Source: Enterospora canceri (Eukaryota > Microsporidia > Enterocytozoonidae). Taken from it: 38,674 nucleotides of DNA. Location: assembly GCA_002087915.1 (NCBI GenBank), contig LWDP01000021.1, forward strand, positions 1 through 38,674, given 5' to 3'. Both the position numbers and the translations under genes were made by a program. Of this stretch, positions 1,479 through 31,473 are shown in pieces. Each line of letters opens with the position of its first letter. Position 1 is the stretch's first letter. The notes beneath the pieces were generated by a model that was not told the DNA's origin, made no database searches, and worked only from the letters and a program-made list of their open reading frames with translations.

Positions 1479-1626
1479 CAGGATCAAACAAACAAACAAT
1501 TAATAGTTGATTACGACACATTTGATTGATTTGTTATTGTCAGATAATAAGTGCAATATACTACAACTGGAACTATAATTAATCTGATTTGATCCCTAAC
1601 AAATATCAATTTGTTTTCTTGCTATT

Positions 1627-2664: not shown

Positions 2665-2837
2665 GGATACAAAAAACAAACAACTGATTTGTATTTGTTT
2701 GATCAATTTTATTGTTTCTGTTAGCAGAAGACCAAATTTAAATAAACCTGTAACTAATCATGTTAACTTAAGCAAATACAACAGTTTAATTGAATATGTT
2801 TAGAATAATGAAACATCATAAAAATCCATTTTATTGA

Positions 2838-4788: not shown

Positions 4789-4882
4789 TTTAGGTGAAAC
4801 AACCCTGAAATAATTAAAGCTGTGTCAAATTGTAAACCTGATATTTATTCACTACGGTTGGGAAATGCTTTTTAAAATTTTA

Positions 4883-4886
4883 CCCC
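4883..4886 (+). promoter_or_regulatory. CCC start-proximal motif of SPT16
   Basis: CCCC preceded by an AT-rich run (TTTTAAAATTTTA) and one base before the ATG at 4888. This is the model form of the CCC signal that recurs at many housekeeping starts in the window. Confidence 0.6.
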
Positions 4887-4887
4887 A

Positions 4888-12655: not shown

Positions 12656-13249
12656 TTAAGCCTTATCTTCTTTCTTGAATTGTTGGATTGTTGCTCTGCA
12701 ATTTCTACGAATGTGCCCCTCTTTACCACATCCGTAACACCTGATCATTCTTCTCCTTCCTGTGATCTGTCCTCTCATCTTCGCTCTTACTACCATATCC
12801 TGTATCGATATCGAATTCTTCAGTTCCAATGCCAGATCTACTCTACTGGGCCAGCATAACGTTGCTAGCAAGTTCACTGTTTCTCTCTCACCCAATTTGT
12901 ACTTATCCAGTTTCCTGATCATTCTTTCCAAGTATTCCGTCGGCATTTCCGTGCCCATCCTGGGCTCTGCTACTTCTGTTGCTAATTGATTTACTGCCAT
13001 CCTCTGTTCCTTGATTAATGTCTCTGTCTGCGACATTAAGTTCGTGAAGTTCCCTACATCCTTCTCGTTCATCCATTGCAGTACCTCTTCCTCTGCATTC
13101 CTTATAACCAGTGCATATTTCGCTGCCGCTGGTGTTTCTAACGTGTTGATCATCCGTACTGTTGTCTGTAAGTTCGTCATTGTTATCCTTGTCGTCATTC
13201 CTGCTGCCTCTGTCCTCGTGTTCCTCTCCTCTGATTGTGGTGCTGTCAT
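12656..13249 (-). CDS. Retrotransposon third ORF: capsid/nucleocapsid-like protein with a CCHC zinc knuckle
   Basis: The protein has 197 residues. A helical region (about 25-165) is followed by a basic stretch and one zinc knuckle: C171-x2-C174-x4-H179-x4-C184 (CYGCGKEGHIRRNC). This is the nucleocapsid signature normally found at the end of Gag, before protease. Here it lies downstream of integrase, in a different frame from pol, overlapping the 3' 347 bases of the pol ORF. In that overlap this frame reads as a plausible protein, while the pol frame is Asp/Asn/Ser-rich and looks accidental. A CCC motif (TTTTACCCAGAATG) precedes its ATG, so a separate transcript is possible; frameshifting from pol is the alternative. 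RNA packaging is the likely role, inferred from the motif. Confidence 0.75.
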   Translation of the reverse strand: MTAPQSEERNTRTEAAGMTTRITMTNLQTTVRMINTLETPAAAKYALVIRNAEEEVLQWMNEKDVGNFTNLMSQTETLIKEQRMAVNQLATEVAEPRMGTEMPTEYLERMIRKLDKYKLGERETVNLLATLCWPSRVDLALELKNSISIQDMVVRAKMRGQITGRRRMIRCYGCGKEGHIRRNCRATIQQFKKEDKA

Positions 13250-16028
13250 TCTGGGTAAAATTTTCCTTTCTTGCTATTTGTGTATGGCATTTCTTCTTCA
13301 CTTTTCCTGAGTCCTTTTCTCTTACTAAATACGTGTCATTCTCCATCTTTCTTTCCACCATACCTTCTTTGATACATTTTGGACCTATCTTACTGTTCAT
13401 TTCCATCTCTGTTCTTCTAATGTAAATCTCCTGTCCTTCCTTGAATTTTTCTCGTCGCTTCTCCTTAAATTCTCTAGCATATCTTCCTGTTCTCTTATTG
13501 CTAGTTTTCAACTGCTCGCTCTCTGGCCATTTCCATGCTTCCTCGGCCGTCATTCCAATGCATCTTCTATACATCTGATTTTTTCCTGTTACAAAATCCT
13601 CTATTAATTCTTGTACGTTTCTCTCTTTTCCTTCTTCCGTATTCTTTCTTAAATACTCATTCCAATCTCTGTGCATTCTCTCTATCCTTCCATTTCCTTG
13701 GTGATGTTCTGGTGTCACCATATGATGCTCTATTCCATTCATTGACAGTACTCTTTGTAATGTCCTATTTGCAAACTCCTTCCCTGCGTCTGTCACTATC
13801 TTTTCCGGTTTCAAACCTCTTCCTATAAACCGTTCAATCTTCCTTACCACTTCCTCTTCCGTTTTTGTCTCCAATCTCTCCATCCATATCTTTCGTGTGT
13901 AATAATCCAATATGGATAATATCGGTGTAGTCTGGTCTATGTATACCAAATCCATTGCCACTAACTGCATTGGTCTCTCTACTTCTACAAATTTCTCTCC
14001 TCCCTTCTTCTTTGTCGGGTTCCTTCTACATTTTTCACATCCTTGTATCACTTGTTCTATGATCTTCTTCAAATCCTTCCATTCATACATTCTTCCTAGC
14101 TTGTATTCCATCGCTTTTCTACCTTTATGTAGTCCTTTTGATTCATGTTCTTCCTTGACTATCTCCATTCTTTCCGCTCTTTCCGCTTCATTTGTTTCCT
14201 CTGTGTACATCCTACTTAGCGCATCCGGCTTAAACATCTCTTTCCCTTGTCTGTATTCCACTGTAAAGTTATACGTTTGTAGCCTATCTCTTATTCTTTC
14301 CAATTTGTTTGTTCCTAGTGCATCTTTGTTTTCAAAGTATTCTATTGCTTTGTGGTCTGTTCTCAATGTAAATTTGCTTCCTCCTATATAATATTTGAAG
14401 TGCTCTATTCCAAATGCTACTGCTAGGTATTCTTTTTCCGTAATACCCGCCTTCCTTTCTGCTTCCGAAAACTTCTTTGATCCCCATGCTACTATTCGTT
14501 CTTCTCCTGCTTCATCTTCTTGTAGCAGGACTGCTCCCATTGCTAAATCCGCTGCATCTGTCTCGATTATGAATTCCTTCTTATGATCTGGTAAGAACGT
14601 TACCGTTCTTTTCCTACATTCTCTCATTATCTCTGTGTATGCTTTTTTCTGTTCTTCCTCCCATATGAATCTTCTTCCTTTCTTCAATAACTCGTATATC
14701 GGTGCTGCCTTATCTGCGAAACCTTGTATGTATCTCGTATATACATTCGCAAACTGCAAGAAACTCTGTAGCTGTATCTTATTCTTTGGTTCTTCATATC
14801 GTAATGCTTTCTTTTGTCTCGCATTATCTGGTTCTTGTGTTCTCCCTGTGATGTAACTCCCTAATAATTTAACCGTTTTCTGTCTGAATTGTACTTTTTC
14901 CTTGTTCAGCGTCAGTCCGTTTTCCTTCAACCTTTTCAATACTTGTCGTATATTCCTATCATGCGTTTCTTTGTCCTCTCCAAATACCACAATGTCATCT
15001 AGATATGTTCTGCAACACTTATTCAATTCTTCTCTTAATATGCCATCCATCACCCTTTGAAATATCGCTGATGAATTCTTAAATCCTTGTGGCATCACAT
15101 TCCATTCGTATAACTTATTTCCCACATAAAATGCTGTCTTATGTCTATCCTCTTCTCTCAATTCTATCTGAAAATATGCATCTTTCAAATCTAACACTGT
15201 GAAATATTCCATTCCCTGTGCTGCCTCGATCACTTCTTGCATCCTTGGTAAACTGTATCTGTCATTTGCCACTATCTTGTTCAAAAAATATAGATTCAGT
15301 GTCAATCTAATCTTTCCATTTGGCTTCCATACTGGTCTAATCGGGTTGAACCAGCTTGATCTCGATCTTCTCACTAATCCTTTACTCTCCAATTCCTCCA
15401 CTTTTTCTTCTACCGCTTTCATCGTTTTGTATTCCCATCTCCTTCCTTTCATTGTTATTCGCTTCCCTGGTATTGTTTCTATTTCTGCTACCACTCCTTT
15501 TACCTTTCCTGTCGCTTCTTCTCCTAGTATCTGTTTATATTCCTGATTCAGTTCTCTCCATGCTTTCCCATTTTCTTCCATTTCTCCTAGGGTGTCTTTT
15601 CCTATCAAAATTCTCATTCCTGGTGCCTCCACTATCCTGAATCTGTCTGTTCTGTCTGTATCACCTGCCTTGTATGTTATCCATATCTCCTTTGTTAGTT
15701 TATATTTCGTTCCGAAAATGTTTTCTACTATCTGTTCTTCTGTCTCGTATCCTTCCATTCCTATCTCCTTGACTGCTTCCTCTGTAATTACATTTATATC
15801 TGCTCCTGTATATCTTATAATTTCCATTGTCGTTCCTTCTACCTTTATCTCTTCTTTTCTTCTTTTCTCTGTCTTCTCAACATGATTTATTTCTACTTTG
15901 TTCTGTTTCTCCTTCTTCTTCCTTTCCTTTATCCGTCTCTCTGCTCCTTCTATGTTCTTCCTCTTCTCTTCCTTCATCTTCCTTCTGTCTCTGTTCCTCA
16001 ACTCCTCTATCTTGCCTATTACGTCCAA
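12903..16028 (-). CDS. pol: Retrotransposon Pol: protease-like, reverse transcriptase, RNase H, integrase
   Basis: The 1041-codon frame has no ATG at its head; it continues the gag-like frame after a single TAA. In order: a basic coiled stretch (1-65); a retropepsin-like region with Y73-T-G-A-D and ILIGKDTL (about 140-147), where Asp is expected at 73; reverse transcriptase (about 190-400) with VLDLKDAYFQ, MPQGFKNS and the YLDD box (342-345); RNase H (about 485-610) with ETDAADLAMGAVL; and integrase with H-x3-H (628, 634 region), C664-x2-C667 and catalytic D693, D747, E783, the last two separated by 35 residues. After about residue 925 the frame overlaps the CCHC ORF and is probably not meaningful. 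Family: Ty3/gypsy (Metaviridae). Confidence 0.9.
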   Translation of the reverse strand: MDVIGKIEELRNRDRRKMKEEKRKNIEGAERRIKERKKKEKQNKVEINHVEKTEKRRKEEIKVEGTTMEIIRYTGADINVITEEAVKEIGMEGYETEEQIVENIFGTKYKLTKEIWITYKAGDTDRTDRFRIVEAPGMRILIGKDTLGEMEENGKAWRELNQEYKQILGEEATGKVKGVVAEIETIPGKRITMKGRRWEYKTMKAVEEKVEELESKGLVRRSRSSWFNPIRPVWKPNGKIRLTLNLYFLNKIVANDRYSLPRMQEVIEAAQGMEYFTVLDLKDAYFQIELREEDRHKTAFYVGNKLYEWNVMPQGFKNSSAIFQRVMDGILREELNKCCRTYLDDIVVFGEDKETHDRNIRQVLKRLKENGLTLNKEKVQFRQKTVKLLGSYITGRTQEPDNARQKKALRYEEPKNKIQLQSFLQFANVYTRYIQGFADKAAPIYELLKKGRRFIWEEEQKKAYTEIMRECRKRTVTFLPDHKKEFIIETDAADLAMGAVLLQEDEAGEERIVAWGSKKFSEAERKAGITEKEYLAVAFGIEHFKYYIGGSKFTLRTDHKAIEYFENKDALGTNKLERIRDRLQTYNFTVEYRQGKEMFKPDALSRMYTEETNEAERAERMEIVKEEHESKGLHKGRKAMEYKLGRMYEWKDLKKIIEQVIQGCEKCRRNPTKKKGGEKFVEVERPMQLVAMDLVYIDQTTPILSILDYYTRKIWMERLETKTEEEVVRKIERFIGRGLKPEKIVTDAGKEFANRTLQRVLSMNGIEHHMVTPEHHQGNGRIERMHRDWNEYLRKNTEEGKERNVQELIEDFVTGKNQMYRRCIGMTAEEAWKWPESEQLKTSNKRTGRYAREFKEKRREKFKEGQEIYIRRTEMEMNSKIGPKCIKEGMVERKMENDTYLVREKDSGKVKKKCHTQIARKENFTQNDSTTIRGEEHEDRGSRNDDKDNNDELTDNSTDDQHVRNTSGSEICTGYKECRGRGTAMDEREGCRELHELNVADRDINQGTEDGSKSISNRSSRAQDGHGNADGILGKNDQETG
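13253..13255 (-). promoter_or_regulatory. CCC motif inside the retrotransposon, before the CCHC ORF
   Basis: On the coding strand TTTTACCC lies three bases before the ATG at 13249, almost the same string as at SPT16 (TTTTACCCC before ATG). It may mark an internal promoter; the match could also be chance. Confidence 0.35.
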
Positions 16029-16451
16029 TTATTCTATCTTAAGCACGTTCTTCACTCTTTCAGATGTTTCTATCTTCAACTTATTTCTAATGTGCCAAAT
16101 CAGGGCTTGCGTGCCCACCTGTAAAAATTTTTGCAAAGTTGCAATTCTTCGTATCACTTCCTCTGTTTCCTCTGTCTCTCCTTGTTCCGGAAACATCTGT
16201 ATTCTTTCCAGTATATTTACTGTTCTTCTCATGTTGCAGTTGATTTTGAACTCTTCCCATGTCGTCGTTCTGTCTATATCTCGCATTTCTCTATAGAAAT
16301 TCGGTCCTCCTTCTATCAGGGTCTTTGCTATTCTCATGCTGTCATTCTTCTTCTTAGTTTTTGGGTGTTTATCTTCCATTTCCATCCAAAAATACTCCAA
16401 ATCTCTCGATCTTTGAGTGGGTGCCATGTTGTAATCCAAGAAATCAAACAT
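16029..16451 (-). CDS. gag: Retrotransposon first ORF, Gag-like
   Basis: The ORF has 140 residues if it begins at the ATG inside the 5' LTR (16451), or 132 if it begins at the ATG that spans the LTR/internal junction (16427-16425). The segment TTWEEFKIN (about 70-78) followed by helices resembles the capsid region of Ty3/gypsy Gag proteins. It ends at a TAA (16031-16029). The pol ORF continues in the same frame, and the Gag-like helical pattern seems to run through the stop. Either stop readthrough produces Gag-Pol, or the stop disables this copy. It has no zinc knuckle of its own. A CCC motif lies ten bases before the LTR ATG. Confidence 0.65.
   Translation of the reverse strand: MFDFLDYNMAPTQRSRDLEYFWMEMEDKHPKTKKKNDSMRIAKTLIEGGPNFYREMRDIDRTTTWEEFKINCNMRRTVNILERIQMFPEQGETEETEEVIRRIATLQKFLQVGTQALIWHIRNKLKIETSERVKNVLKIE
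16407..16426 (-). other. Primer-binding site of the retrotransposon
   Basis: Directly after the 5' LTR the coding strand reads TGGCACCCACTC and onward. TGG is the complement of a tRNA CCA end, so a tRNA with 3' end GAGTGGGTGCCA is predicted as primer. Neither tRNA in this window fits. The TG of the site also forms the last two bases of an ATG with the final A of the LTR. Confidence 0.6.
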
Positions 16452-17015: not shown

Positions 17016-18071
17016 TTATTTCCGTTTATCTGTTTCTTTTGTCCTGTTAAACATCTTCCTGTACAGCTTCGCTTCCAAAAAAGTGAATTTATAAAATGGC
17101 TTAATGCTCAATAGTAGCCCAGCATGCCATAAAAAGTGCGAATCCATCAAATAGAATAGCGGCGGGAAGTCACTTAACTCGAATACACCTGATATTATTA
17201 TCAAATTGGTCAATGTTACTATTTTGTCCTTGATATGCTTGTTTTTGTAGTAGACTGTTGTAATCAGGTAATTCAATTGAATCAAACACAACAGTATCCC
17301 ACATACTACCATATTATACTTGTAGTTGAAGTCAATATAGAGCATTCTGTATACATGATACACGTATCCAGTCACAAATATAATTCGTACTGTCTGTTTC
17401 AATACATAATAGCATTTTGGTAATTCTGTACCACTTTGTCTATTCTTTTTGTTTATACTGATCAATATCAGAATATTCCTCTGTGTTGTTACCAATGCAC
17501 TCATTGCAATGGTAAATACAGCTGTAAAATAGTCCATGTTTCTGGTCAGTACTGTTTCATGAAGATGGAATAGAAATGATGATATGAATGCAAGTGACAT
17601 TGCACCGTAGTGAATCAGGTAATCGACTCTGAGTGGGGATCCTCTTGATATTCGCACCAATTTCTTGTAGTAGGACAAGTTTATGATGAACTTGAGCAAA
17701 GCACATCCTGAGCTAAGTAGCTCAGTGAATCCAAGTAACGACATGAATATCCATCTTCCGTTGTACTTACAGTTATTGTACTTCAGTTGCTTGATACAGT
17801 TGTAATTACATAGTAGAACTGCCTTATCCAACTTGGTTCTATTCAATATTCTGTCTACAAAGTTGAGTTTGATTTCTTCCACTATTTCATCAACACAACC
17901 ACCAGAACAGCTTACCAGACTGTTGAACTGGTCATCACTTCCTCGCATGAACAGCCTGTCAAATGGCATGAAGGGTGTTAATTTATTATTATAAATTGAT
18001 TTGAGATATTCTAATGTTTTGTTTGTTTTAAAAACAGATATTCTCAATATGATGATGTGGTGTATTAGCAT
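17016..18071 (-). CDS. PER1: PER1/PGAP3-like protein, GPI-lipid remodelling (CREST superfamily)
   Basis: The protein has 351 residues. A short hydrophobic N-terminus is followed by the lumenal Cys-rich region (CSGGC, 55-59; CNYNC, 88-92) and KYNGRW (102-107), then about seven membrane segments. The CREST-type catalytic residues are visible: FHLHE at about 168-172, the downstream DYFTA, and D310-S-H312 with LWH316 near the C-terminus, after an ELSDFPP block. In yeast, Per1 removes the sn-2 acyl chain from GPI anchors in the ER and needs these His and Asp residues. The N-terminal signal segment is weak. The gene has no CCC motif near the ATG. Confidence 0.88.
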   Translation of the reverse strand: MLIHHIIILRISVFKTNKTLEYLKSIYNNKLTPFMPFDRLFMRGSDDQFNSLVSCSGGCVDEIVEEIKLNFVDRILNRTKLDKAVLLCNYNCIKQLKYNNCKYNGRWIFMSLLGFTELLSSGCALLKFIINLSYYKKLVRISRGSPLRVDYLIHYGAMSLAFISSFLFHLHETVLTRNMDYFTAVFTIAMSALVTTQRNILILISINKKNRQSGTELPKCYYVLKQTVRIIFVTGYVYHVYRMLYIDFNYKYNMVVCGILLCLIQLNYLITTVYYKNKHIKDKIVTLTNLIIISGVFELSDFPPLFYLMDSHFLWHAGLLLSIKPFYKFTFLEAKLYRKMFNRTKETDKRK

Positions 18072-18246: not shown

Positions 18247-18846
18247 ATGTCACTGGATAACATCAAGAAATATTTTGAAGTGAGAAGATTTGCTATGGAT
18301 GAAGATGACTACAGCAAGTTAATGGGATTGGTTGATGCGCTGGGTGAAGGATTGGACAAGAAAGAAGCAGATTCAAATGTGCTGAAAGATGAAGGTGATA
18401 AGTTGGTGGAAAATGGTAAATTGTTTGATGGTCTGGACAAGTATCAAAATGGATTGGAGATTTGCCCACTGAATAAGTTGATATTGTTGCATAGGGCAGG
18501 AGTATATGGTCAGATCAGTAAGAAACTGAAGAATTGTGACAACTGCATTTGTGGAGACAAACCAAAGGAAGAGGCCAAAAAGTTTGAATACAAATCATTT
18601 TATGATTTGGTAGAAGATAAGAAACTGTGCTACCACCAAAAAGTGAATTTATTCAACAAATGTGCCATCAACGATTCAATCCGAGGACTACACGTTGATC
18701 CATTTGATGCCAGGTTTTATGTTAAACTGATTGAAATCCATGAAGATGATTCCAAGGCACAGGAATATTATTTAAGAGAAGGATTGAGAATAGCACCTGA
18801 GAACGATGAGCTAATGAAGTTGAAAGAGATAATATTAAAGGAATAG
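18247..18846 (+). CDS. TPR-repeat protein (possible Hsp70/Hsp90 co-chaperone)
   Basis: The protein has 199 residues and is soluble. A clear TPR begins at about residue 46 (LKDEGDKLVENGKLFDGLDK, then YQNGLEICPLN and LLHRAGVY). Two more degenerate repeats follow; the last reads AQEYYLREGLRIAPENDEL (about 170-188). A Cys pair motif (CDNCICG, about 98-104) interrupts the series and may bind metal. The wording of the first repeat resembles the two-carboxylate-clamp TPRs of co-chaperones such as Sgt or Cns1, but I cannot assign one. The start is preceded by TTTTTACACC, a weak form of the CCC signal. Confidence 0.7.
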   Translation: MSLDNIKKYFEVRRFAMDEDDYSKLMGLVDALGEGLDKKEADSNVLKDEGDKLVENGKLFDGLDKYQNGLEICPLNKLILLHRAGVYGQISKKLKNCDNCICGDKPKEEAKKFEYKSFYDLVEDKKLCYHQKVNLFNKCAINDSIRGLHVDPFDARFYVKLIEIHEDDSKAQEYYLREGLRIAPENDELMKLKEIILKE

Positions 18847-19126
18847 TTATATTAAACAACCAGTATGATTTATTAAATGACAATTGCAGTTTAATATTAC
18901 CGCAGGTATTTAGCAGTGCACTATTCAACTACCTGAATGCTCAATAGGTTGTTAGATGTTTCAATTATACTTCATCATGTTACATTATTTGTGATTTCAC
19001 TGATCAGATTAAGGTTGCTTAAATGTATAATAATATCAATGCATGTGTTGATTTATGTTTTAATATGATTGTTTTGATGGTTTTTTGTTTATTTGTTAGT
19101 ATTTAAGAATTTTACAACAATAAACA

Positions 19127-19990
19127 ATGATCTTTGTAGCAACCTTTCTCAATGTCGTGCAAACTTCTTTTGATCGGATAAATGAAGCACTTGAAGGAAT
19201 ACAGGAACTGAGTGATTTTATTAATGAATCTCAGCAACAAAGAGGTGAGAGAGAGCCAGCAGAAAACGCCCATCAGATGTTTGGTGATATTCTTAATTCA
19301 ATCGCACGTAATCAAGAACAATCTGAACGTGAATCAACAAGTGCATTGGAAGGTAGATTACATAGAGTAGGACAAGCCCGTAGACGGAGTAGATTCGGCG
19401 AAAGGTCTGGTATGAGCCACGTTGTAATCGAAAATCCAAGAGTGAGACGTGTTAGACCATATATATCACCACTTGATGAATGCAGGGAGGTTATTCGTCC
19501 CAGTACAAGTACTGCAACCAATTTGGTAAAGATGACTTGTTCAGAACCAGCAGAAATTATTGTCACTGAAGAGCCAAGACCTAAGGTTAGGAAAGTGGTC
19601 GTAGTATCAACAGCAAGAAGAGTAAGACCAGCAAGAAGAATACACGTTTCTAGCAGCAGAATCAGATTGAAGAATATCACTACACCATCAATACAAAATG
19701 GTAGGATGTCTACGACTCTTAGTATAATAGGAGATGATCTGGATAGCTTCATTGAAAATTATGAGTTTGGGGTAATATTTCTAGACCGATATAACGAAGA
19801 AATTGATTATAGACCAATTGAACCATCAACATACGGACAAAATCCAAAACAGTTCAAAGTGGTTATGAAGATGTTAGAAGGTACCACCAAGATCACTTTT
19901 ATAGCAAGGTGTTTAACAAACGATTATTCAGATCAATATTACACAAGCTATAAGTACGATCACGTCAAAAAGAGGTTCATGTTGGCGTAA
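19127..19990 (+). CDS. Secreted family protein 1 of a four-gene tandem array
   Basis: The protein has 287 residues. A short hydrophobic leader (MIFVATFLNVVQTSF) is followed by a Gln/Glu/Ser-rich region and an Arg-rich middle (about 80-190, with RRVRPARR and RKVVVVSTARRVRPARR-type strings). The conserved C-terminal domain of about 90 residues (190-285) has the family pattern: alternating strand, D-x-x-x-F/I, then GVIFLDRYNEEIDYRPI, and a last strand ITFIARC. No known family is recognised. The neighbours at 20472, 21194 and 21818 are paralogues. The upstream element AATAAACA sits directly before the ATG in place of CCC. Secretion is inferred from the leader. This is the longest member. Confidence 0.7.
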   Translation: MIFVATFLNVVQTSFDRINEALEGIQELSDFINESQQQRGEREPAENAHQMFGDILNSIARNQEQSERESTSALEGRLHRVGQARRRSRFGERSGMSHVVIENPRVRRVRPYISPLDECREVIRPSTSTATNLVKMTCSEPAEIIVTEEPRPKVRKVVVVSTARRVRPARRIHVSSSRIRLKNITTPSIQNGRMSTTLSIIGDDLDSFIENYEFGVIFLDRYNEEIDYRPIEPSTYGQNPKQFKVVMKMLEGTTKITFIARCLTNDYSDQYYTSYKYDHVKKRFMLA

Positions 19991-20471
19991 GTATGAAATA
20001 TCAAGCAAATAACCACCTTATGTAAATAGTTTAGTTTCTGGCTAGAGAGAAGAATTGTTTTTGACTGTTATTGACACGCAACTAACATGTGCCTGAAAAT
20101 ACCTTGCTTCAACCAGCAGAAAGTACCCATCGTGTTCGTCTTGTTTAGTTAGTAATTGATAGGAGTGACAGCTTTAGTGATCTTACGAATAGTCCCTTAC
20201 ACCTACCCAACATGAATAAATGAGAAATAATAAAATATGAATATTTTTCAGGTTTGATAAATTAAATCATACTTGTATTTTATAGTAGTAACATCATAAA
20301 TTCTCTTGTCACCTTCTAAAGTGTTCTAGAAATTGATCATCCTGTCATTCTTCAATGATCCATGTACATCTCCTGTTCAATTGGTGTTAATTGATCTTCT
20401 TCTATTTTCCAATTGATATTTTTGTTTGTTTGTGATCATATTTAAATATAAACAAAAATTCCAACAAACAT
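19991..20471. other. Intergenic stretch between the first two secreted-family genes
   Basis: About 480 bases without a supported gene. It is AT-rich and includes one TTCTAGAA palindrome (20324-20331) and the TATAAACA-type element just before the next ATG. I see no clear remnant of a family member. Confidence 0.5.
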
Positions 20472-21026
20472 ATGCTGGTTTTTGTAACATTGATCAACCT
20501 GATACTAACAGCAGCTGGGTCTATAGAAGAACGCAGATCATCTAGAATACGAAAAAGAGAACAAGAGCGTTCAAAGGCAGAAGAAGCATCTGGTGTAGAT
20601 GAACCAAAAGCAAAGAAACCAAGACAGAAAAGAACACAAAAAAAGGCTGAAGTGCCAAAGAAAGCACTAAAAAAGACACCAAAGAAAGCAGCAGAAAAGG
20701 TGCCTGAAATCACATTTGTTGCACATCCAATCATTGTTAGTGGGAAAATTGATATGCGAGTCTCCCTCGACACTGAAGATGTGGAAGAATTCCTTGATAA
20801 AAACGAAATTGGAATACTGTTGATGGATGAAAATTCTGATGAAATCAATTATGTTCCAGCTGTAAAAGAAAGAGTACTAAGAAACTCGAAATCCATTCGC
20901 TTGTCCCTCGATAATATCGATCTGACAAGTTTCACTAGCCTATGTGTTGCGATAAAGAACAAGGAAGATGGTAGCTACCTAAAACCATTGAAACATTCAG
21001 GTACAGCACTAATTCAGGTTGTATGA
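20472..21026 (+). CDS. Secreted family protein 2 of the four-gene array
   Basis: The protein has 184 residues. The leader MLVFVTLINLILTAAGS has a plausible cleavage site after Ala-Gly-Ser. The middle (about 20-80) is very Lys-rich with KKTPKKAAEK-type strings and could act as a nuclear-localisation or nucleic-acid-binding region; this is inference. The C-terminal domain (about 90-175) shares the family pattern, including EIGILLMDENSDEINYVP. An ATATAAACAAA element lies about 20 bases before the ATG. No family outside the array is recognised. Confidence 0.7.
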   Translation: MLVFVTLINLILTAAGSIEERRSSRIRKREQERSKAEEASGVDEPKAKKPRQKRTQKKAEVPKKALKKTPKKAAEKVPEITFVAHPIIVSGKIDMRVSLDTEDVEEFLDKNEIGILLMDENSDEINYVPAVKERVLRNSKSIRLSLDNIDLTSFTSLCVAIKNKEDGSYLKPLKHSGTALIQVV

Positions 21027-21193
21027 TTCGTATTGAACAAGAAATAGCTGATCAATAAAATGAAGAATATAAAGTAGTTTGCTACACCAATGTTTCACTA
21101 AATTCGTATTTGTTTCTCACCAATATTCTTTAATTACCTTCCTACCCACAAAATCAGTTTATTTTGTTGTTTTACATTCCACGGTTATAAACA

Positions 21194-21691
21194 ATGCTCT
21201 TCATTTCACACCTAGTTCATTTCATAGAATGCGCTACAAACAACGGCAATAGACCACTACAGCTAACTCAACAGCAGAGGCAAGATAGACCGAACAGAAG
21301 TAGGAATTATCAAGCTCAACTAGAATCAAGAAATGTGGTGCCTATAACCAGTGAGAACACCAAATTGCTATTCAACAGTAATCCGATTCTAATGGGTGAC
21401 AGTTTGAAATGTCGCCTGACAATTGTGACACCTGACATCCACCAATTTAATAAGGATTATACCACAAGTATAGTATTCCTGAATGAATTAGGCAATCAGA
21501 TTCAATTTAACCCAATTGCACCAGAACTATTCATACCAGATCCATCCTACTTTGAATTTAGGTCGAAAGCCCCTGAATTTTTCAATTCAATCATATTTGT
21601 AGCAAAAAGTAGAAATATGAACAGATCAGACATCCAATCACCACAATACAAGTACAAATCAGATGAAAATTACTTCGTTGCAATGGAATAA
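21194..21691 (+). CDS. Secreted family protein 3 of the four-gene array
   Basis: The protein has 165 residues, the shortest member. The leader is MLFISHLVHFIECAT. The middle is short (about 15-60), Gln/Arg/Asn-rich, and the C-terminal domain (about 65-155) follows the family: LKCRLTIVTPDIHQFNKDY, then TTSIVFLNELGNQIQFNPIA, then IIFVAKSRN. The element TTATAAACA ends directly at the ATG. No outside homologue is recognised. Confidence 0.7.
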   Translation: MLFISHLVHFIECATNNGNRPLQLTQQQRQDRPNRSRNYQAQLESRNVVPITSENTKLLFNSNPILMGDSLKCRLTIVTPDIHQFNKDYTTSIVFLNELGNQIQFNPIAPELFIPDPSYFEFRSKAPEFFNSIIFVAKSRNMNRSDIQSPQYKYKSDENYFVAME

Positions 21692-21817
21692 ACAAACATT
21701 TCATTTTGCAACAATCTAAGCATCAAATAACCTGAATTGGTTACGATTTAATGTGCTCGTTTAAATCAGTGATCAAGTTGTTTGTCGTCTATAAACAATC
21801 AATCACACAAACAACCC

Positions 21818-22381
21818 ATGCTTATTCTTGCAACACTGATCAACATCGTGATGTCTTCCTCTGGTGAAGAGTCTCCCAATCCTGGAGCAAATCCTGTGGT
21901 TGTAGTTGTTGGTGATCCATCAAGAATAGAAGTAGCCAAGCTGGTACAAAACCTTACCAAAAGAGAGAGTACCTCACGTATACTAAGAGCACGGACTACG
22001 CCATACAGTAGAACTACACGAAGAACAACAGCTGTTTCTTCTACTCCAAAATTGCACAATTATACGGCACCAGTCCTATCAAATAACGCAATAACCATAC
22101 ATCTCAAAATTGAAACAAGTGATATCACCGCATTTAATACCGAATACACACCAATCATACTATTCATGGATTCAAATGGACATGAACAGTCTCATGTTGT
22201 GATAACCCCTGACATGTATGAGGATGATCACAACTCGTTTAAAATTGAAATTGATGTCCCTGATCATTCACTAGAAAGGGTATCTTTTGTAGGAAGGAAT
22301 AAGGTAACAAAAAAGTACGAGTTGTGGTCGAGTGGATACAAATTCAATTCAACAACTAAAGTCTTCGAATACACTCCATGA
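21818..22381 (+). CDS. Secreted family protein 4 of the four-gene array
   Basis: I place the start at the ATG at 21818 (187 residues), because the open frame before it begins with TTG and would put charged residues ahead of the leader. The leader MLILATLINIVMSSSGEE is nearly the same as in members 1 and 2. A Thr/Arg-rich middle (about 45-80) is followed by the C-terminal domain (about 85-180: ITIHLKIETSDITAFNTEY, TPIILFMDSNGHEQSHVVI, VSFVGRNK). The element CTATAAACAA lies about 20 bases upstream. It converges with RPC1, with 39 bases between the coding ends. Confidence 0.7.
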   Translation: MLILATLINIVMSSSGEESPNPGANPVVVVVGDPSRIEVAKLVQNLTKRESTSRILRARTTPYSRTTRRTTAVSSTPKLHNYTAPVLSNNAITIHLKIETSDITAFNTEYTPIILFMDSNGHEQSHVVITPDMYEDDHNSFKIEIDVPDHSLERVSFVGRNKVTKKYELWSSGYKFNSTTKVFEYTP

Positions 22382-22420: not shown

Positions 22421-25400
22421 TCATTCACCAACTATTATTTCAACATCTTCATTGGTTCCCTTATTGATCTGTTTTCCAACAATCACTGATTCACTGACTC
22501 CTCGTATTAAATCAGTTCTTGATTCAACTGCTGCTCCAAACAGGAAGTCTGCTGTCTGCTCAAATGACGCAAGCATCAACGTGCTATTCTTTGCATTCTT
22601 CATCCCAAACCTGGTTATTCCAAGAAGGGCACCACGAACAGTCATTGCGTCACTGAGCAGTTGCAAATGCCTCTGATCTATTTTGATCCCATGTGATTCC
22701 ATCGTCTGCTCTATTTCAGCAATGATTGATTCACGAGCTGCCTCAATTCCAAGAACGCCCTCAATTTCAACCACGTTGTTTGTTTTGATCGTGGAATAGT
22801 CCAATTCGAGGGAGGCAGCAATGCTCAGAATGTTCAGGAACTCACCAACACCAGCATTCACCAGAAGAGCAAAGAGACCAGTCGTGCTCTCTGCTTCGAC
22901 AAAGAAGCCGTTGCACTCCTTCAGCCCAGCCACCTGGGCATTCATCAAGTCGTCTCTCAGCTTATTCTCCCTAAAATCACTGTACCTGTGTTTTACGGTG
23001 TATTTTCTCTCACTGTTTCTGGTGATGTTCAGCCTCTCAGCCACCCTCTCATCAATTGCCTCACTTGTCTCCATCTCAATCACACTAACTACCCTGTCTT
23101 TCACTATTCTGAATTCCCTTCTCATTTCCACCAGAATGTCCCTCATCCTCTTCTTCTGAATCACTGCCCTTAGTTTTGATACGGCCTCTTCTGTCAGACT
23201 GCCCAGTCTCACAACAGGGGTGCTGATGCAATGGGTTCCATTGATGATCTCCTTCAGTCTCGGAACTCCCTGTGTGATATTCATCGATGCTACCCCAGCA
23301 AAGTGGAATGTCTTTAGGGTCATCTGCGTCCCTGGTTCCCCTATCGACTGCGCCGACATCGCCCCAACACAGCTCCCTGGTTCAATCCCCAGGTCGGCAT
23401 CTTTTTTCCCATTCTGCCTATTCCACTTCAGTGGATCCACCCCATCTCCACCGTACGCAAATTGCACTATTTCACCGTGACTGTTTCTCACTGTCCCATC
23501 GTATTTCACACTCAGATCCTCCAATGCCTTCATCAGCCTCCTCTGCATGTACCCCGTCTCAGCCGTCTTCACTGCCGTATCAACCAGCCCCTCTCTCCCA
23601 CTCACCGTGTGAAAGAAGAACTCATTTGCCCTTAATCCACTGAAAAATGAGTTATAGACAAATCCCCTATAAAATATGTCATTTTCAATCGACTCATCCG
23701 TCTTGGTCTCTTTCCTCTCTTCCACCATGTGGGGCAGTGTTCTACCATCCATTCCATTTCGTATTCTCTCACCAGAAACAACCTGCTGTCCCACACATGC
23801 AACCATCTGACTCACGTTGATTCTGCTTCCCTTGCTCCCACACTCAGCCATCACCACGGCTGAGTTGCTGCGACTCAGATTCATCAGGCAGACTGTTCCA
23901 CACTCCTCTCGTATCCGATTCAGGCTGCTTGTGATCTCCATCTCGTCCACTACGTCAAACAGCCTCTTTTTGGTTCTATCAAATATTTCCTCCTTCTTCT
24001 CCCTGACTGCCTCGTTCATGAATACGTCATCCAGGCCAATGCTGAATCCACGTTCCATCAGAAAGCGGGAGCTGATTCGAGAGAGGTCGTTGATGAATCT
24101 GATGCACGCCTCCCTCGATATCTCGAGCAATCTGCACACTACAGATCCCTTTCTGTTTTCTGCCCCAATAATCGCCTTATCCAATTCGCCCATGATGAAT
24201 TTGCCACCCCAAAATAGAACTCGATTCAGCCCCCTGTTTTTGGTATCCAAATTCAGCCTGGTTTCAGACCCAACCAAAATCAGGTCCAACATGGCCTGAA
24301 TCACCTGCTTTCCGCTGTACAATGAAACTGCCCCCATTCTGATCACTGGCTCCACTTCCATTCGCCCAACAATCTCCAGATTTGCCACCAGCCCATAGAA
24401 GTCGCTCTTGTTGAGAAACCTGTCTTTCTTGGTCATCAAATACGCCCCAGTGATGAAGTCCTGGGTCGGCGAGACCAGTGGCTCGTTGTTTCTGATTGTG
24501 CAGATGTTCCGTCGCACACTCATCAGCTCGGCCGCCTCTGCCTGCGCCTCCTTCGTCTGTGGAACGTGAATGTTCATTTCGTCTCCATCAAAATCGGCGT
24601 TGTACGGGTTGCAGACGCACTCGTTGAATCGAAGTGTCTTGTGGTCTCCAACTCGAACTCGATGGGCCATGATGCTCATTCGGTGGAGAGACGGCTGCCT
24701 GTTGAACAGAACGACGTCTCCGTCCCTGAGGTGCCTCTCAACGGTGTCACCCACTTTCAGTCGCCTGTTTTTCGCATACTTCAGAAACACCCTGATTTGC
24801 TTCCTGTTTCCCTCCTTCTCCACCTCTCTCACGACGTAGTTGGCGCCTTCGAGCACCCCTGGCCCGTTTTCAACCAGTTTCTCAAGTCGCCCCTTGTTCA
24901 ACGAGGTGACCTTCTCTGGCACCGTCATTTCCAGTGCCATTTCAAGGGGCATCCCAACCTCCTCCACCGACAGATTCGGATCGGGTGAAATCACCGTCCT
25001 CCCAGAGAAGTCGACTCGTTTCCCACTCAGATTCATCCTGAACCTGCCTCCTTTTCCCTTGATTCGATTCACAAGCGACTTGATTCCAGTCGAATTCGGA
25101 ACACTCACCCCAGGCAGGTCTGAGTTGATGTAGAGCGCAACCTGCAGCTGGACGTAGTCCCAGTCGTCGTTCAGCGTCTGCATCCTCACCCCTCGCCTCA
25201 TCCCGTCCTCCAGCAGACCGTTGCTGTTGATTATTTCGGATATTTTCACTGTCAAATCGTCCTCATTAAATCCATCTTTATGCATATCAACACTGGGGCG
25301 AATGCAACTTGGTGGAACCAGGAGACTTCGGACCAGGAGATTCGTTGGCCTCGTTCTGAGATTCAGCAGCACCAGCTCCTCCTCCTTCGTGTTCTCGAAG

Positions 25401-25966
25401 ATGTTCAGGACGGCCAGTGGATTCAGCTCGTGCTCCACCACGTTCCCCTGGTCCCTGGTCCCAGCCCTGGTCTCCTCGTACACCCTGAATTGCCCATTCT
25501 TCTTCACTGTTCCAGTCGCACCCTTGCACTGGTAGCAGTGTTTCGCCTTCTTGCATTCTGCCCTGATTCTCTCAAGGAGCCTCTTTCTCTCTGGGTCTCC
25601 TTCCCTGATTTGGCCTATTTTGATTAGAAAGGTCGTTTTCTGTGAATTGGTCAGCAGTATCGAACTGCACTTCGTACAGATGCAGTTGAGGACAGAGAGC
25701 ACCTGTTTGATCAGGCAGATGTGGAAGACAGGGAGACAGAGGCTGACTCGGCCCCAGTGGCCAGGACACTCCTGTAGGCCGGCTCCACACGTCTCACAGA
25801 GGGCGTCTCCCGTGCTCACGCCCAGTCTCAGGTCGAGTGGCCCCCCTGGAAACGGCTTCCTGGTCTCCATGTCGTGGATTGTCTTGTTCGTTATTTCAGC
25901 AATGCTCAGGCTGTTTATTTCGTCCTCGTTGAGGAGTCGGAACTCAATTTTATCAACCTCAAACAT
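22421..25966 (-). CDS. RPC1: RNA polymerase III largest subunit
   Basis: From the Met at 25966 the protein has 1181 residues; 18 further codons are open upstream but would overlap the preceding gene. The zinc-binding N-terminus (CETCGAGLQECPGHWG, about 50-65) is followed by C-T-K-C and C-x-x-C pairs. The active-site loop NADFDGDEMN is at about 455-465. The bridge-helix region near 800 includes GEPGTQMTLKTFHFAGVAS, followed by MNITQGVPRLKEIINGT. This last wording is typical of Pol III over Pol I and II. There is no heptad C-terminal domain, which also excludes Rpb1. Yeast Rpc160 has 1460 residues, so this is a shortened form. Role: synthesis of tRNA, 5S and other small RNAs. Confidence 0.93.
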   Translation of the reverse strand: MFEVDKIEFRLLNEDEINSLSIAEITNKTIHDMETRKPFPGGPLDLRLGVSTGDALCETCGAGLQECPGHWGRVSLCLPVFHICLIKQVLSVLNCICTKCSSILLTNSQKTTFLIKIGQIREGDPERKRLLERIRAECKKAKHCYQCKGATGTVKKNGQFRVYEETRAGTRDQGNVVEHELNPLAVLNIFENTKEEELVLLNLRTRPTNLLVRSLLVPPSCIRPSVDMHKDGFNEDDLTVKISEIINSNGLLEDGMRRGVRMQTLNDDWDYVQLQVALYINSDLPGVSVPNSTGIKSLVNRIKGKGGRFRMNLSGKRVDFSGRTVISPDPNLSVEEVGMPLEMALEMTVPEKVTSLNKGRLEKLVENGPGVLEGANYVVREVEKEGNRKQIRVFLKYAKNRRLKVGDTVERHLRDGDVVLFNRQPSLHRMSIMAHRVRVGDHKTLRFNECVCNPYNADFDGDEMNIHVPQTKEAQAEAAELMSVRRNICTIRNNEPLVSPTQDFITGAYLMTKKDRFLNKSDFYGLVANLEIVGRMEVEPVIRMGAVSLYSGKQVIQAMLDLILVGSETRLNLDTKNRGLNRVLFWGGKFIMGELDKAIIGAENRKGSVVCRLLEISREACIRFINDLSRISSRFLMERGFSIGLDDVFMNEAVREKKEEIFDRTKKRLFDVVDEMEITSSLNRIREECGTVCLMNLSRSNSAVVMAECGSKGSRINVSQMVACVGQQVVSGERIRNGMDGRTLPHMVEERKETKTDESIENDIFYRGFVYNSFFSGLRANEFFFHTVSGREGLVDTAVKTAETGYMQRRLMKALEDLSVKYDGTVRNSHGEIVQFAYGGDGVDPLKWNRQNGKKDADLGIEPGSCVGAMSAQSIGEPGTQMTLKTFHFAGVASMNITQGVPRLKEIINGTHCISTPVVRLGSLTEEAVSKLRAVIQKKRMRDILVEMRREFRIVKDRVVSVIEMETSEAIDERVAERLNITRNSERKYTVKHRYSDFRENKLRDDLMNAQVAGLKECNGFFVEAESTTGLFALLVNAGVGEFLNILSIAASLELDYSTIKTNNVVEIEGVLGIEAARESIIAEIEQTMESHGIKIDQRHLQLLSDAMTVRGALLGITRFGMKNAKNSTLMLASFEQTADFLFGAAVESRTDLIRGVSESVIVGKQINKGTNEDVEIIVGE

Positions 25967-26009
25967 AGGCAAAAAAGTAGTGAAATTGGTAAAACAGGAA
26001 ATCACCTGT

Positions 26010-26732
26010 TTAGACCCCACTTTGGTCTTCCGTGCTTGATTCTACGCTGTTTGGTGCCGTGATTCTCACAACCCTGTTGAACTTGGATTCAGCCTCCTTG
26101 GAGTAGTGGCCTGTTATCAGAATGCACTTGTCCTTATTGACTCGGAATATTTCATCCAAATAAATTTCATCTGGATCATCAAAGAGGAGTATTTCCCTAT
26201 TTTCTGCCAGGTAGAGTGCTCGTAACAGGCTGATTGCACTCTTCGTGTCGTAATCAACCCTGTTGTTCGTGAACACCCTATTGCTCCTGATGTGATCAGA
26301 AAGAATTTCATTCAGCCTATCGTACTTAGCAACTACCTCAAGGACACGCATCTTCTCAGACAGAGGCAGAAACAGGTTGTCTAAGACAGTTCCATTCAGA
26401 ATCAGTGGATCCTGCTCCAAGTACGAGATCACGGAATAGAACTCGTCGTAAGTCAGAAATATCGTGGCCGTGATTTCCGAATCGAGATTCTCAAGAAACA
26501 CCTGCGACTTGTAGTCGTTCAACAAGTAGACGAAAAACTTGGTCTTCCCAACGCCATTGGTTCCGCCTATGAGGATCTTCTCGCCCTTTGATCCGGATAT
26601 TCTTTGGATGCGTCTGTTCAGCTCGACTTCGAGGATGACTCGGTAGTTATTGGGCAGTTTGTAGAGAGCACGTGGCTCATTTGACGTCTCCTTCAACAGA
26701 AACGTGTTTCTATCGTAGTTATTGAAGATCAT
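26010..26732 (-). CDS. ABC transporter ATPase domain as a separate protein
   Basis: The protein has 240 residues and one nucleotide-binding domain. Walker A is GGTNGVGKTK (56-65). The Q-loop is Q107 in YLEQDPLILNGTVLDNL, typical of exporter-type ABCB/ATM1 proteins. Walker B is ILLFDDPDE (181-189), with Asp186 where the catalytic Glu normally stands. The H-loop His is H209 (TGHY). The signature LSGGQ is not recognisable (expected about 157-165, where VDYDTKSAISLLRAL stands). The gene follows the membrane-domain gene at 26770-28092 on the same strand, 37 bases away, and has its own CCCC motif, so the two probably form a split half-transporter. Activity is uncertain because the signature and catalytic Glu are altered. 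Confidence 0.8.
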   Translation of the reverse strand: MIFNNYDRNTFLLKETSNEPRALYKLPNNYRVILEVELNRRIQRISGSKGEKILIGGTNGVGKTKFFVYLLNDYKSQVFLENLDSEITATIFLTYDEFYSVISYLEQDPLILNGTVLDNLFLPLSEKMRVLEVVAKYDRLNEILSDHIRSNRVFTNNRVDYDTKSAISLLRALYLAENREILLFDDPDEIYLDEIFRVNKDKCILITGHYSKEAESKFNRVVRITAPNSVESSTEDQSGV

Positions 26733-26769: not shown

Positions 26770-28092
26770 TTATGTGACAGTATTTTGTGCATAAACATAG
26801 AATTCCTTCCCAAAAAGGTGGCCCCTGGACAGTTCCAGGCTGTTGTACGTTTCAAGAAGGGCCTTGGTGCAGCTGTACAGCGACAGAACAGTGGCACAGA
26901 CCTCGTAGTCACTGGCTACCTGCGACTTGAGCAGCAGGTACGCAACTGAAAAGGATACACAGGCAATTATTGCTGAAAATAGGCTATGATTGACGTAAAT
27001 GAGTCTATTGCTGTTATTGTTCCACTTCAGTGCCACTGTGAAGTCGTCGTCATTGTTGAAGAGGCTATGGGTCTCAATGATGTTGCATACGTTCCGATTG
27101 TAGTTCACAATCGTCAGAGAGGCTATTGCGTACTCTTTTCTGTCTATTTTGGTATATGAAATTGTCTTAAATAGCGAATAAATTCCAAATGGCAAATCGT
27201 ACAAGAAAGCAGCTGAGGCTGCTTCAAGCGTGTCTGAGTGCCGATACGTCAACGAGTAGATGTCTGCGGCTGTCATGTGCGTGAATGGGCTTCTTTTTGC
27301 CTTTTTTGTATCCAATGCAATGTTCTGGAAGAAGTAGAACTGTAGGACACTTCCAATGTGGTCGGCGTAGATTGGCTTCATGATATTGGCCAATGACTGC
27401 GTCAGAAGAGACGTCACCTTCAGAATGAGCATTTTGTTGCAATTTCCGGTTGTTGAAGAAGCAAATAATTTCTGTTCGTAGTGTTCTAGNGGCAAATCGT
27501 ACAAGAAAGCAGCTGAGGCTGCTTCAAGCGTGTCTGAGTGCCGATACGTCAACGAGTAGATGTCTGCGGCTGTCATGTGCGTGAATGGGCTTCTTTTTGC
27601 CTTTTTTGTATCCAATGCAATGTTCTGGAAGAAGTAGAACTGTAGGACACTTCCAATGTGGTCGGCGTAGATTGGCTTCATGATATTGGCCAATGACTGC
27701 GTCAGAAGAGACGTCACCTTCAGAATGAGCATTTTGTTGCAATTTCCGGTTGTTGAAGAAGCAAATAATTTCTGTTCGTAGTGTTCTAGAAATCGAATAG
27801 CAATTTCGTTGATTACGATCAGAAGGAAGCTTGCAGCCAGAAAGAGCTGGAGCATCAGCGACTTTCTGATGAAGAAGACGATGAATCGCAGGAAGTTCAT
27901 TCTGCTGAATGACGACTTGATCTTCTTGTGCACCACTGGCTTCTTGATTTTCTTCTCCTTCTTCTTGAAACGAAAGAGTTTCTTGGTTGTCGTGTTCGAC
28001 GTCACTTGGTTTGAGGAACTGCTGCTGATACTGGGGGCCGCTTCTGGATCAGCCTCTTGATTCTCCGGGCTGGTGGAAAAGTTTTTTTCCAT
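26770..28092 (-). CDS. ABC transporter membrane domain as a separate protein (assembly duplication inside)
   Basis: The start is the Met at 28092, supported by a CCCC motif. As given, the frame is 440 residues with one unknown at the N (27490). Removing one of the two 299-bp copies would leave about 340 residues in one frame. The N-terminus is hydrophilic and Ser-rich, then Lys-rich (FRFKKKEKKIKK). Membrane segments follow at about 75-100, then a soluble loop with THMTAADIYSLTYRHSDTLE resembling the elbow/coupling region of ABCB-type exporters, and further segments in the C-terminal third. The closest match by wording is ATM1/ABCB7-like half-transporters; identity is inferred mainly from the ATPase gene next to it. 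Confidence 0.7.
   Translation of the reverse strand: MEKNFSTSPENQEADPEAAPSISSSSSNQVTSNTTTKKLFRFKKKEKKIKKPVVHKKIKSSFSRMNFLRFIVFFIRKSLMLQLFLAASFLLIVINEIAIRFLEHYEQKLFASSTTGNCNKMLILKVTSLLTQSLANIMKPIYADHIGSVLQFYFFQNIALDTKKAKRSPFTHMTAADIYSLTYRHSDTLEAASAAFLYDLXLEHYEQKLFASSTTGNCNKMLILKVTSLLTQSLANIMKPIYADHIGSVLQFYFFQNIALDTKKAKRSPFTHMTAADIYSLTYRHSDTLEAASAAFLYDLPFGIYSLFKTISYTKIDRKEYAIASLTIVNYNRNVCNIIETHSLFNNDDDFTVALKWNNNSNRLIYVNHSLFSAIIACVSFSVAYLLLKSQVASDYEVCATVLSLYSCTKALLETYNSLELSRGHLFGKEFYVYAQNTVT
27191..27489. repeat. 299-bp exact direct duplication, copy 1 (probable assembly artefact)
   Basis: The bases from GGCAAATCGT to GTGTTCTAG are repeated exactly at 27491-27789, with a single N between. The same arrangement and size occur at 32305-32903. 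Confidence 0.9.
27491..27789. repeat. 299-bp exact direct duplication, copy 2 (probable assembly artefact)
   Basis: Second copy of 27191-27489, directly after the N at 27490. Most simply this is an unmerged overlap of two contig ends. Confidence 0.9.
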
Positions 28093-30594: not shown

Positions 30595-31473
30595 ATGGAT
30601 CGCAAGAGCAGGAATAAGATTGCAATCATATACACTGTTGTCATGGGACTCATCATATTGGCCATTGCTGCCGCACTTGGAATCTACTACGGCAACAACA
30701 AATCAAAGTACAATAAATTCAAAGAAGAAAAAGCAGCAAAGCCTCCTAAGAAAATCAAGTACAAATATTTCATACCAGAAGATGAAATAGAGAGAACAAA
30801 CATGCTCTTCAACTTGAGAGAACTGAAACTGGAAGAGTTGGCTGACAAGTTGCAGCAGCTCGATCCAAACGAGTATCTGAAAAAGAACTTTGATAAAATC
30901 TCAAAGGAGGCTAGAGAAGTAGTCAAGACCAAGTTGAAGAACAACGAGATCCACCTGACTGGAATGGTCCTCTTCAACATCCAACTGATCTACTTCCATC
31001 TCCACGGCTACAACCTGCTTGAAACAGGCTTCTCCTACGACGATTACGCCAATAAGGGGAAATTGGACGTCCTAAGCAGGGATCCAGCACTTTGGTACAT
31101 TTTCCCGTTGGACGAGAATTCGACGCTACAGCCTGAAAAACTCATCATGGAGTTCACGTACAACATGCTGTGCAAGGAAACGACGATTCTGGTCGACCAC
31201 GCCGTCCCAATCTGCAGTGAATTCGAAAAAGGGCTGTCACGCCTGACTGCAGATCCAGAAGTAGGCGATGATTGGTACAACCACAAAGAATACGTCTACA
31301 ACATGTTCAAGATCATACGAGTAGAGAAGTTCTTCAGGAAATTCGAGAAAGGGAATACACATCTGAACAAATACAGGACCTATTTGACAACACACCAGGA
31401 GAGGGTGTTGACAAATAATGTCTATTATAAACAGAAAGACAAAATTGCGGCTACAAAAAGCTTGGTTAAATAA
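30595..31473 (+). CDS. Signal-anchored protein of unknown function, 292 residues
   Basis: One membrane segment near the N-terminus (about 10-31: IAIIYTVVMGLIILAIAAAL) follows a basic start, so the bulk is probably lumenal or extracellular. The remaining 255 residues look helical, with no motif I recognise. The next gene has the same layout, and a stretch of each (here KLKNNEIHLTGMVLFNIQLI, there KIKKMEIKNLEPRDIKRILF) is weakly similar, so they may be distant paralogues. The start is supported by CCCC. Confidence 0.7.
   Translation: MDRKSRNKIAIIYTVVMGLIILAIAAALGIYYGNNKSKYNKFKEEKAAKPPKKIKYKYFIPEDEIERTNMLFNLRELKLEELADKLQQLDPNEYLKKNFDKISKEAREVVKTKLKNNEIHLTGMVLFNIQLIYFHLHGYNLLETGFSYDDYANKGKLDVLSRDPALWYIFPLDENSTLQPEKLIMEFTYNMLCKETTILVDHAVPICSEFEKGLSRLTADPEVGDDWYNHKEYVYNMFKIIRVEKFFRKFEKGNTHLNKYRTYLTTHQERVLTNNVYYKQKDKIAATKSLVK

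What the first reader, a model, noticed from the sequence alone, without database searches (positions are those of the whole stretch)
19127..22381. Tandem four-gene family of unrecognised secreted proteins
Four consecutive plus-strand genes share a nearly constant hydrophobic leader (for example MLVFVTLINLI and MLILATLINIV), a variable and often basic middle (Arg-rich, Lys-rich, Gln/Asn-rich, Thr/Arg-rich), and a C-terminal domain of about 90 residues with strand-like patterns and an I[VIL]FL[DN]-type core. Constant leader plus variable middle is the pattern expected of fast-evolving effectors. I know of no named family with this layout.
Basis: partly seen in the sequence, partly recalled or inferred. 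Interest (0 to 1): 0.75.

Follow-up and report, generated by a model that had tools for sequence, protein, structure and literature searches.

The report
Lineage-specific secreted Ig-like protein family
Four neighbouring genes (and a fifth copy on another contig) of a microsporidian parasite encode probable secreted proteins that share a short leader and one immunoglobulin-like folded domain but show no detectable similarity in between; this is the expected look of a family facing the host, and it appears to be a new family of that well-known kind.

Summary
Four plus-strand ORFs (19127-19990, 20472-21026, 21194-21691, 21818-22381) are diverged paralogues: domain alignments score 7.4-18 SD above shuffles, leaders are similar (clearly so for genes 1, 2 and 4), middles show no detectable similarity. 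New here: (1) a fifth copy elsewhere in the same 2.24-Mb genome has the domain internal, followed by a Lys/Asp/Gly-rich tail; (2) AlphaFold2, from the four window sequences, folds the domain confidently (pLDDT 89.6, pTM 0.81) as an immunoglobulin-like beta-sandwich; (3) all four array genes, not the fifth copy, carry ATAAACA within 45 nt of the ATG, against 2 of 74 other ORFs. No named family, PDB-sequence match or outside relative was found, though the protein search is word-limited and missed gene 4 itself. The nearest named relatives, by a neighbouring gene, are Enterocytozoonidae. Fold matches are generic. Best reading: a small, perhaps clade-restricted, tandemly duplicated family of secreted, probably host-exposed binding proteins: a new member of a known kind. 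Secretion, host exposure and binding are inferred, not shown.

The parts
19127..19990 (+). Gene 1 (287 aa): leader 1-14, long Arg-rich middle 15-171 (pLDDT under 50 at 82-88, 90-166, 171-175), Ig-like domain about 172-287
20472..21026 (+). Gene 2 (184 aa): leader, Lys/Arg-rich middle 15-76 (net +13), most divergent domain about 77-184
21194..21691 (+). Gene 3 (165 aa): leader, short Gln/Asn/Arg-rich middle 15-51, domain about 52-165 (residues 45-165 folded by AlphaFold2, mean pLDDT 89.6)
21818..22381 (+). Gene 4 (187 aa from ATG 21818): leader, Thr/Arg-rich middle 15-72, domain about 73-187
19120..19126 (+). ATAAACA directly before the ATG of gene 1; the same heptamer lies within 45 nt of the ATG of genes 2, 3 and 4
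20057..20115 (+). Spacer stretch 72% identical (43 of 60 columns) to the region upstream of the fifth copy (L019:3183-3242)
   Evidence: 37.4 bits; best of 100 dinucleotide shuffles 26.6; best of nine other spacers 28.1
20139..20215 (+). Dispersed intergenic repeat, 9 further matches on C45, C37 (2), C52, C4, C1 (2) and C73 (2)
   Evidence: also 58, 62
20218..20291 (+). Spacer stretch 79% identical (60 of 76 columns) to the region just downstream of the fifth copy (L019:4373-4447)
   Evidence: 55.9 bits; best of 100 dinucleotide shuffles 26.6; best of nine other spacers 18.9

Best explanation
A small, tandemly duplicated and perhaps clade-restricted family of secreted proteins of an Enterocytozoonidae-like microsporidian. 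A short signal peptide sends each protein into the secretory pathway. An unconstrained, mostly basic linker holds, and may help to anchor electrostatically, one Ig-like beta-sandwich that serves as the binding module. The paralogues arose by local duplication with their promoters, then diverged so that each presents a different surface and linker; the likeliest place of action is the host-parasite interface (host cytosol or parasite/spore surface). Shown by computation: paralogy, the leader/variable/domain layout, predicted fold, predicted disorder in gene 1, a shared upstream motif in the array, a portable domain in a fifth copy. Inferred: cleavage, secretion, host exposure, binding.
For: Domain homology among five genes. 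Leaders hydrophobic (best 9-residue KD mean in residues 1-20: 2.62, 2.54, 2.21, 2.16, 1.71; 4 of 5 in the top 15 of 79 ORFs, gene 3 at rank 23). Middle without detectable similarity and disordered over residues 82-88, 90-166 and 171-175 of gene 1. Confident Ig-like sandwich, same order of elements in gene 1. Fifth copy with the domain internal. ATAAACA within 45 nt upstream of 4 of 4 array genes, against 0 of 1 for the fifth copy and 2 of 74 other ORFs. No relative outside this genome found in the protein database, although that database holds E. bieneusi and Ec. hepatopenaei proteins. In Nematocida, host-exposed proteins are enriched for targeting signals, large families and clade specificity, and the large families are often adjacent (PMC5423893, passages).
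Against: No signal-peptide predictor was at hand. Gene 1's leader is predicted to run on into one long helix (residues 2-37, pLDDT 59-77 by ten-residue block), which could be an anchor or amphipathic helix. Only five members were found, few for an effector expansion. No expression or localisation data. The basic clusters give no nuclear-import motif beyond composition. Clade restriction is provisional: the protein search needs shared 5-residue words, one search did not list the window's own gene 4 although its length was eligible, and could not list gene 1 because of its length limits.
Confidence: 0.58

Rival explanations
1. Spore-coat or polar-tube structural proteins: the basic linker binds the polyanionic wall or host glycosaminoglycans and the Ig-like domain packs the coat; variation reflects drift, not host conflict.
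For: Leader plus charged low-complexity linkers; Lys/Asp/Gly-rich tail in the fifth copy. The microsporidian spore wall protein EnP1 is also described as a secreted protein that targets the host nucleus (PMC12795459, abstract and introduction read), so the two roles need not exclude each other.
Against: 0 to 1 cysteines per domain; no match to a named wall or polar-tube family in Pfam. No spore proteome was available, so this rival was not tested directly.
Confidence: 0.21
2. Signal-anchor or ER-resident proteins: the leader is not cleaved and the domain stays in the parasite's own secretory pathway.
For: Gene 1's leader is modelled as part of a 36-residue helix; no Lys or Arg in the first 14 residues of any of the five; secretion not demonstrated.
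Against: The hydrophobic stretches are only about 11-16 residues by eye, short for a membrane anchor (length rule recalled), and in genes 2, 4 and the fifth copy small residues follow at once. The middle is unconstrained between paralogues, unusual for a resident factor.
Confidence: 0.13
3. Secreted nuclear effectors that mimic an Ig-like histone chaperone (ASF1-like): the basic tail takes the protein to host chromatin and the domain binds histones.
Confidence: 0.04

Closest known systems
Clade-specific large gene families of host-exposed microsporidian proteins (e.g. NemLGF1 and NemLGF5 of Nematocida; PMC5423893 and PMC10393165, passages read)
   Same: Paralogous, leader-bearing, adjacent through local duplication, no relative found outside the genome, no known sequence domain
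   Different: Only five members found here against the 10-member threshold used there; no sequence comparison with those families was made; Ig-like fold predicted here
EnP1, spore wall protein and nucleus-targeted effector (PMC12795459, abstract and introduction read)
   Same: Secreted microsporidian protein; a possible working model for proteins with basic segments
   Different: Sequence not compared; no homology claimed
Microsporidian ricin B lectin-like family (PMC10759460, passages read; PMC9224602, search listing only)
   Same: Secreted family built on one compact beta-rich domain
   Different: Ricin B lectin domains are beta-trefoils; here an Ig-like sandwich is predicted and no Pfam Ricin_B_lectin hit appears
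Ig-like / FN3 folds in the PDB (ASF1, Brr2 FN3-like region, DUF3823, complement MG domains)
   Different: 1-18% identity in the listed rows, tied scores, no shared motif established; fold resemblance only

Membership tests
Microsporidian large gene family (definition of PMC5423893) | At least 10 members in one genome | tested here: inconclusive
Microsporidian large gene family (definition of PMC5423893) | Enriched in signal peptides or TM segments | tested here: inconclusive
   5 of 5 start with a hydrophobic leader by Kyte-Doolittle (ranks 6, 9, 13, 15 and 23 of 79 ORFs); no SignalP available
Microsporidian large gene family (as described in PMC5423893) | Clade-specific | tested here: inconclusive
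   0 relatives outside this window listed in about 5.8 billion proteins although two named Enterocytozoonidae are in the database; the search is word-limited and one search missed gene 4
Microsporidian large gene family (as described in PMC5423893) | Members often adjacent, suggesting local duplication | tested here: met
   4 of 5 members in one head-to-tail array, fifth on contig C36
Immunoglobulin-like beta-sandwich fold | Two-sheet sandwich topology | tested here: met
   AlphaFold2 models of genes 3 and 1; the top PDB matches are mostly Ig-like, FN3-like and MG domains; predicted, not solved, and genes 2, 4 and the fifth copy were not folded as targets
ASF1 histone chaperone | ASF1-like Ig core distinguishable from other Ig folds | tested here: inconclusive
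ASF1 histone chaperone | Sequence homology to ASF1 | tested here: not met
   Profile of five domains finds no PDB sequence at E up to 10; no ASF1 family in the Pfam tables
Ricin B lectin-like proteins | Ricin_B_lectin Pfam match | tested here: not met
   No such hit for five domains at E up to 10, with HMMER's filters on
InterB / DUF1609 family | DUF1609 Pfam match | tested here: not met
   No such hit for the four full window proteins at E up to 1 or five domains at E up to 10
EnP1 | Sequence similarity to EnP1 | not tested
   EnP1 sequence not fetched

The most novel reading that the evidence does not exclude
A microsporidian 'structural effector' scaffold: one Ig-like domain, kept in fold but hardly in sequence, is duplicated, moved relative to disordered charged segments (N-terminal basic linker in the array, central position with a Lys/Asp/Gly-rich tail in the fifth copy) and exported to bind different host partners, comparable in logic to fold-conserved effector families of plant-pathogenic fungi (comparison recalled). 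Related members may exist in other Enterocytozoonidae below the reach of sequence search and be findable only by fold.
Probability: 0.3. Interest if true: 0.6.

Novelty: new member of a known kind. Interest (0 to 1): 0.4.

Why it matters
Enterocytozoonidae include parasites of people and of farmed animals, and what they expose to the host is largely unknown (general knowledge). A small family with a confidently predicted fold gives a concrete handle: the domain can be expressed, solved and used as a structural query to find relatives that sequence search misses. It also shows that a microsporidian 'orphan' family can be folded from only four diverged paralogues.

Tried and rejected
Family labels: weak Pfam and NCBIfam hits (DUF4934, DUF7034, MC4, PsbQ, GspB and others, below the curated cut-offs and each for a single member) rejected as chance. 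Solved-structure sequence search gave one irrelevant hit at E 1.9 for gene 2 and none for the profile.

Nuclear-localisation idea for the basic middles: not supported beyond composition. dN/dS: not computed, divergence too high. The idea that the gene 1-gene 2 spacer is the vacated position of a fifth-copy-like gene is suggestive only, because dispersed repeats lie in the same spacer and upstream of the fifth copy. The idea that these repeats mark leader-bearing genes is weak: 3 of the 9 other matches of the spacer repeat and 1 of the 3 of the other repeat lie upstream of such a gene.

Literature searches: 17 of 17 papers listed; 20 of 35; 20 of 178; 20 of 32; 20 of 37; 4 of 4; 0 papers. No title or abstract start in those lists points to this family; the unlisted papers were not seen.

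Full report
What was checked. The window is contig C16 (38,674 b) of an unnamed 2,242,678-base, 75-contig genome. Its source is microsporidian: the Per1-like neighbour (17016-18071, Pfam PF04080, E 1.7e-35) has 5 hits in the protein database, one being itself; the named ones are Enterocytozoon bieneusi (56% identity) and Ecytonucleospora hepatopenaei (46%), and two unnamed records are closer (61% and 58%). The window therefore most likely comes from an Enterocytozoonidae-like species; the species itself was not identified, and one gene is a thin basis for placement.

The four genes. ORFs 19127-19990, 20472-21026, 21194-21691 and 21818-22381 all lie on the plus strand, between a 199-aa ORF with no Pfam match (18247-18846) and a large RNA polymerase II-type subunit on the minus strand (22421-26020, named by eye from the sequence). 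Single-protein searches of the own genome link them; the weakest listed array pair is gene 3 to gene 2 at E 0.03. For domain pairs, 10 of 10 local alignments stand 7.4 to 18 SD above 500 shuffles, with 12-29 identities over 42-111 aligned residues. For the middles, 10 of 10 pairs are at shuffle level (z -1.3 to 1.4). For residues 2-14, 0 of 20,000 shuffles reach the observed similarity, but the fairer control, 18 other hydrophobic N-termini of the same genome, shows that only the three pairs among genes 1, 2 and 4 exceed all 90 family/other pairs. The same three are the only matches to a degenerate leader pattern in the whole genome (3 forward, 0 reverse, 0 in both controls).

A fifth copy. 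Genes 1, 3 and 4 each also hit contig C36 near 30,756-31,073 (E 1.6e-6, 1.6e-5 and 5.9e-5); the gene 2 search, at its default cut-off of 0.001, did not list it. The ORF there (L019:3439-4359, 306 aa) has a leader (MLFVWMTVGITSA), a middle with net charge -2, the domain at about 105-212, and a 94-residue tail rich in Lys, Asp and Gly. Searched back, it meets genes 1, 4 and 3 at E 2.2e-6, 2.6e-5 and 1.5e-4 and gene 2 only at 0.047 (domain alone: 1.4e-7, 1.0e-5, 1.7e-5 and 0.085). No sixth member appeared in seven searches; these are single-sequence searches with counts stated to be lower bounds. The genes around it in L019 include, read by eye, PCNA and a TruB/Cbf5-like gene, and two further short leader-bearing ORFs.

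Upstream regions and spacer. ATAAACA lies within 45 nt of the ATG in 4 of 4 array genes, not in the fifth copy, in 1 of 11 other leader-bearing ORFs that I picked by eye and in 1 of 63 remaining ORFs (n = 79 non-overlapping ATG ORFs of at least 120 aa in the window and ten fetched loci). The shorter TATAAA is in 4 of 5 family genes (not gene 1), 0 of 11 and 7 of 63. The position of ATAAACA varies: it abuts the ATG in genes 1 and 3 and begins 24 and 27 nt upstream in genes 2 and 4. This fits duplication of each gene with its promoter. The 481-base gene 1-gene 2 spacer holds, in order, a stretch like the upstream side of the fifth copy (72% over 60 columns, 37.4 bits, best of 100 shuffles 26.6), a dispersed repeat with 9 other matches in the genome, and a stretch like the downstream side of the fifth copy (79% over 76 columns, 55.9 bits, best shuffle 26.6). 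Against nine other spacers, the best scores were 28.1 bits for the upstream and 18.9 for the downstream flank. The same order and orientation would fit an ancestral fifth gene between genes 1 and 2, since lost from the array or moved. Because repeats occur on both sides, this remains a suggestion.

Absence elsewhere. Profile searches with the four full proteins (7,716 candidates) and the five domains (307 candidates) list only this window's own proteins: genes 1-3 and genes 4, 3 and 2. The database does hold two named Enterocytozoonidae. The absence is not strong, however: candidates must share exact 5-residue words, one search did not list gene 4 although its length was eligible, and the length limits shut out gene 1. 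Pfam and NCBIfam give nothing above the curated cut-offs.

Mechanism. Shown by computation: a duplicated family with a similar leader, an unconstrained and (in gene 1) largely disordered linker and a conserved Ig-like domain, with a shared upstream motif in the array. Inferred: the leader is cleaved, the protein is exported, and the Ig-like face binds a partner, most likely at the host interface. The inference rests on published properties of microsporidian host-exposed proteins: targeting signals, paralogous families, clade restriction, adjacency (PMC5423893, passages; PMC10393165, passages). Results against it: no leader-cleavage evidence, few members, a long predicted helix at the start of gene 1, no nuclear motif beyond composition, and a weak basis for clade restriction.

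Verdict. Real, and new as a family in the searches made here, but of a well-known kind. Interest is moderate. It would rise if fold-based searches revealed a wider Ig-like effector scaffold in Enterocytozoonidae, or if a host partner were found.

Noticed in passing
window 459-3839 (-): Three tandem leader-bearing paralogues with C48 (Ulp1-like) protease domains (Pfam PF02902: E 1.6e-4, 1.3e-5, 3e-7): a second tandem family of probably secreted proteins on the same contig.
   Followed up: partly
window 12656-16451 (-): Retroelement with a CCHC zinc knuckle (just under Pfam's cut-off), reverse transcriptase, RNase H and integrase domains; Ty3/gypsy-like by domain order (recalled).
   Followed up: no
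window 27191-27789: Exact 299-nt direct repeat, start-to-start spacing 300, inside a 450-aa membrane-protein-like ORF upstream of a separate ABC-type ATPase ORF (26010-26732): real duplication or assembly artefact.
   Followed up: partly
window 20139-20215 and L019:3052-3172: Two short dispersed intergenic repeats that are adjacent to each other on contig C4. Some copies lie near contig ends (C45, C37, C4); those on C73 (2), C1 (1 of 2) and C26 lie about 110-370 bp upstream of leader-bearing genes, the rest do not.
   Followed up: partly
L064:4258-5496 and 6551-7348 (contig C26): Another neighbouring pair of leader-bearing paralogues (MIMELILLNTLGLISASQPS / MIMEFLFFNTLGLISASQPS) with a dispersed repeat about 200 bp upstream of the first.
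   Followed up: no
L019:2204-2584 and 4639-5055: Two short leader-bearing ORFs flanking the fifth family member on contig C36.
   Followed up: no
window 9685-10587 (+): Protein with a hydrophobic N-terminal stretch and a weak, below-cutoff OTU-protease match (E 0.021).
   Followed up: no
C68:1489-1887: DNA similar to the low-complexity Lys/Asp/Gly tail of the fifth copy (72%); probably simple-repeat convergence.
   Followed up: no
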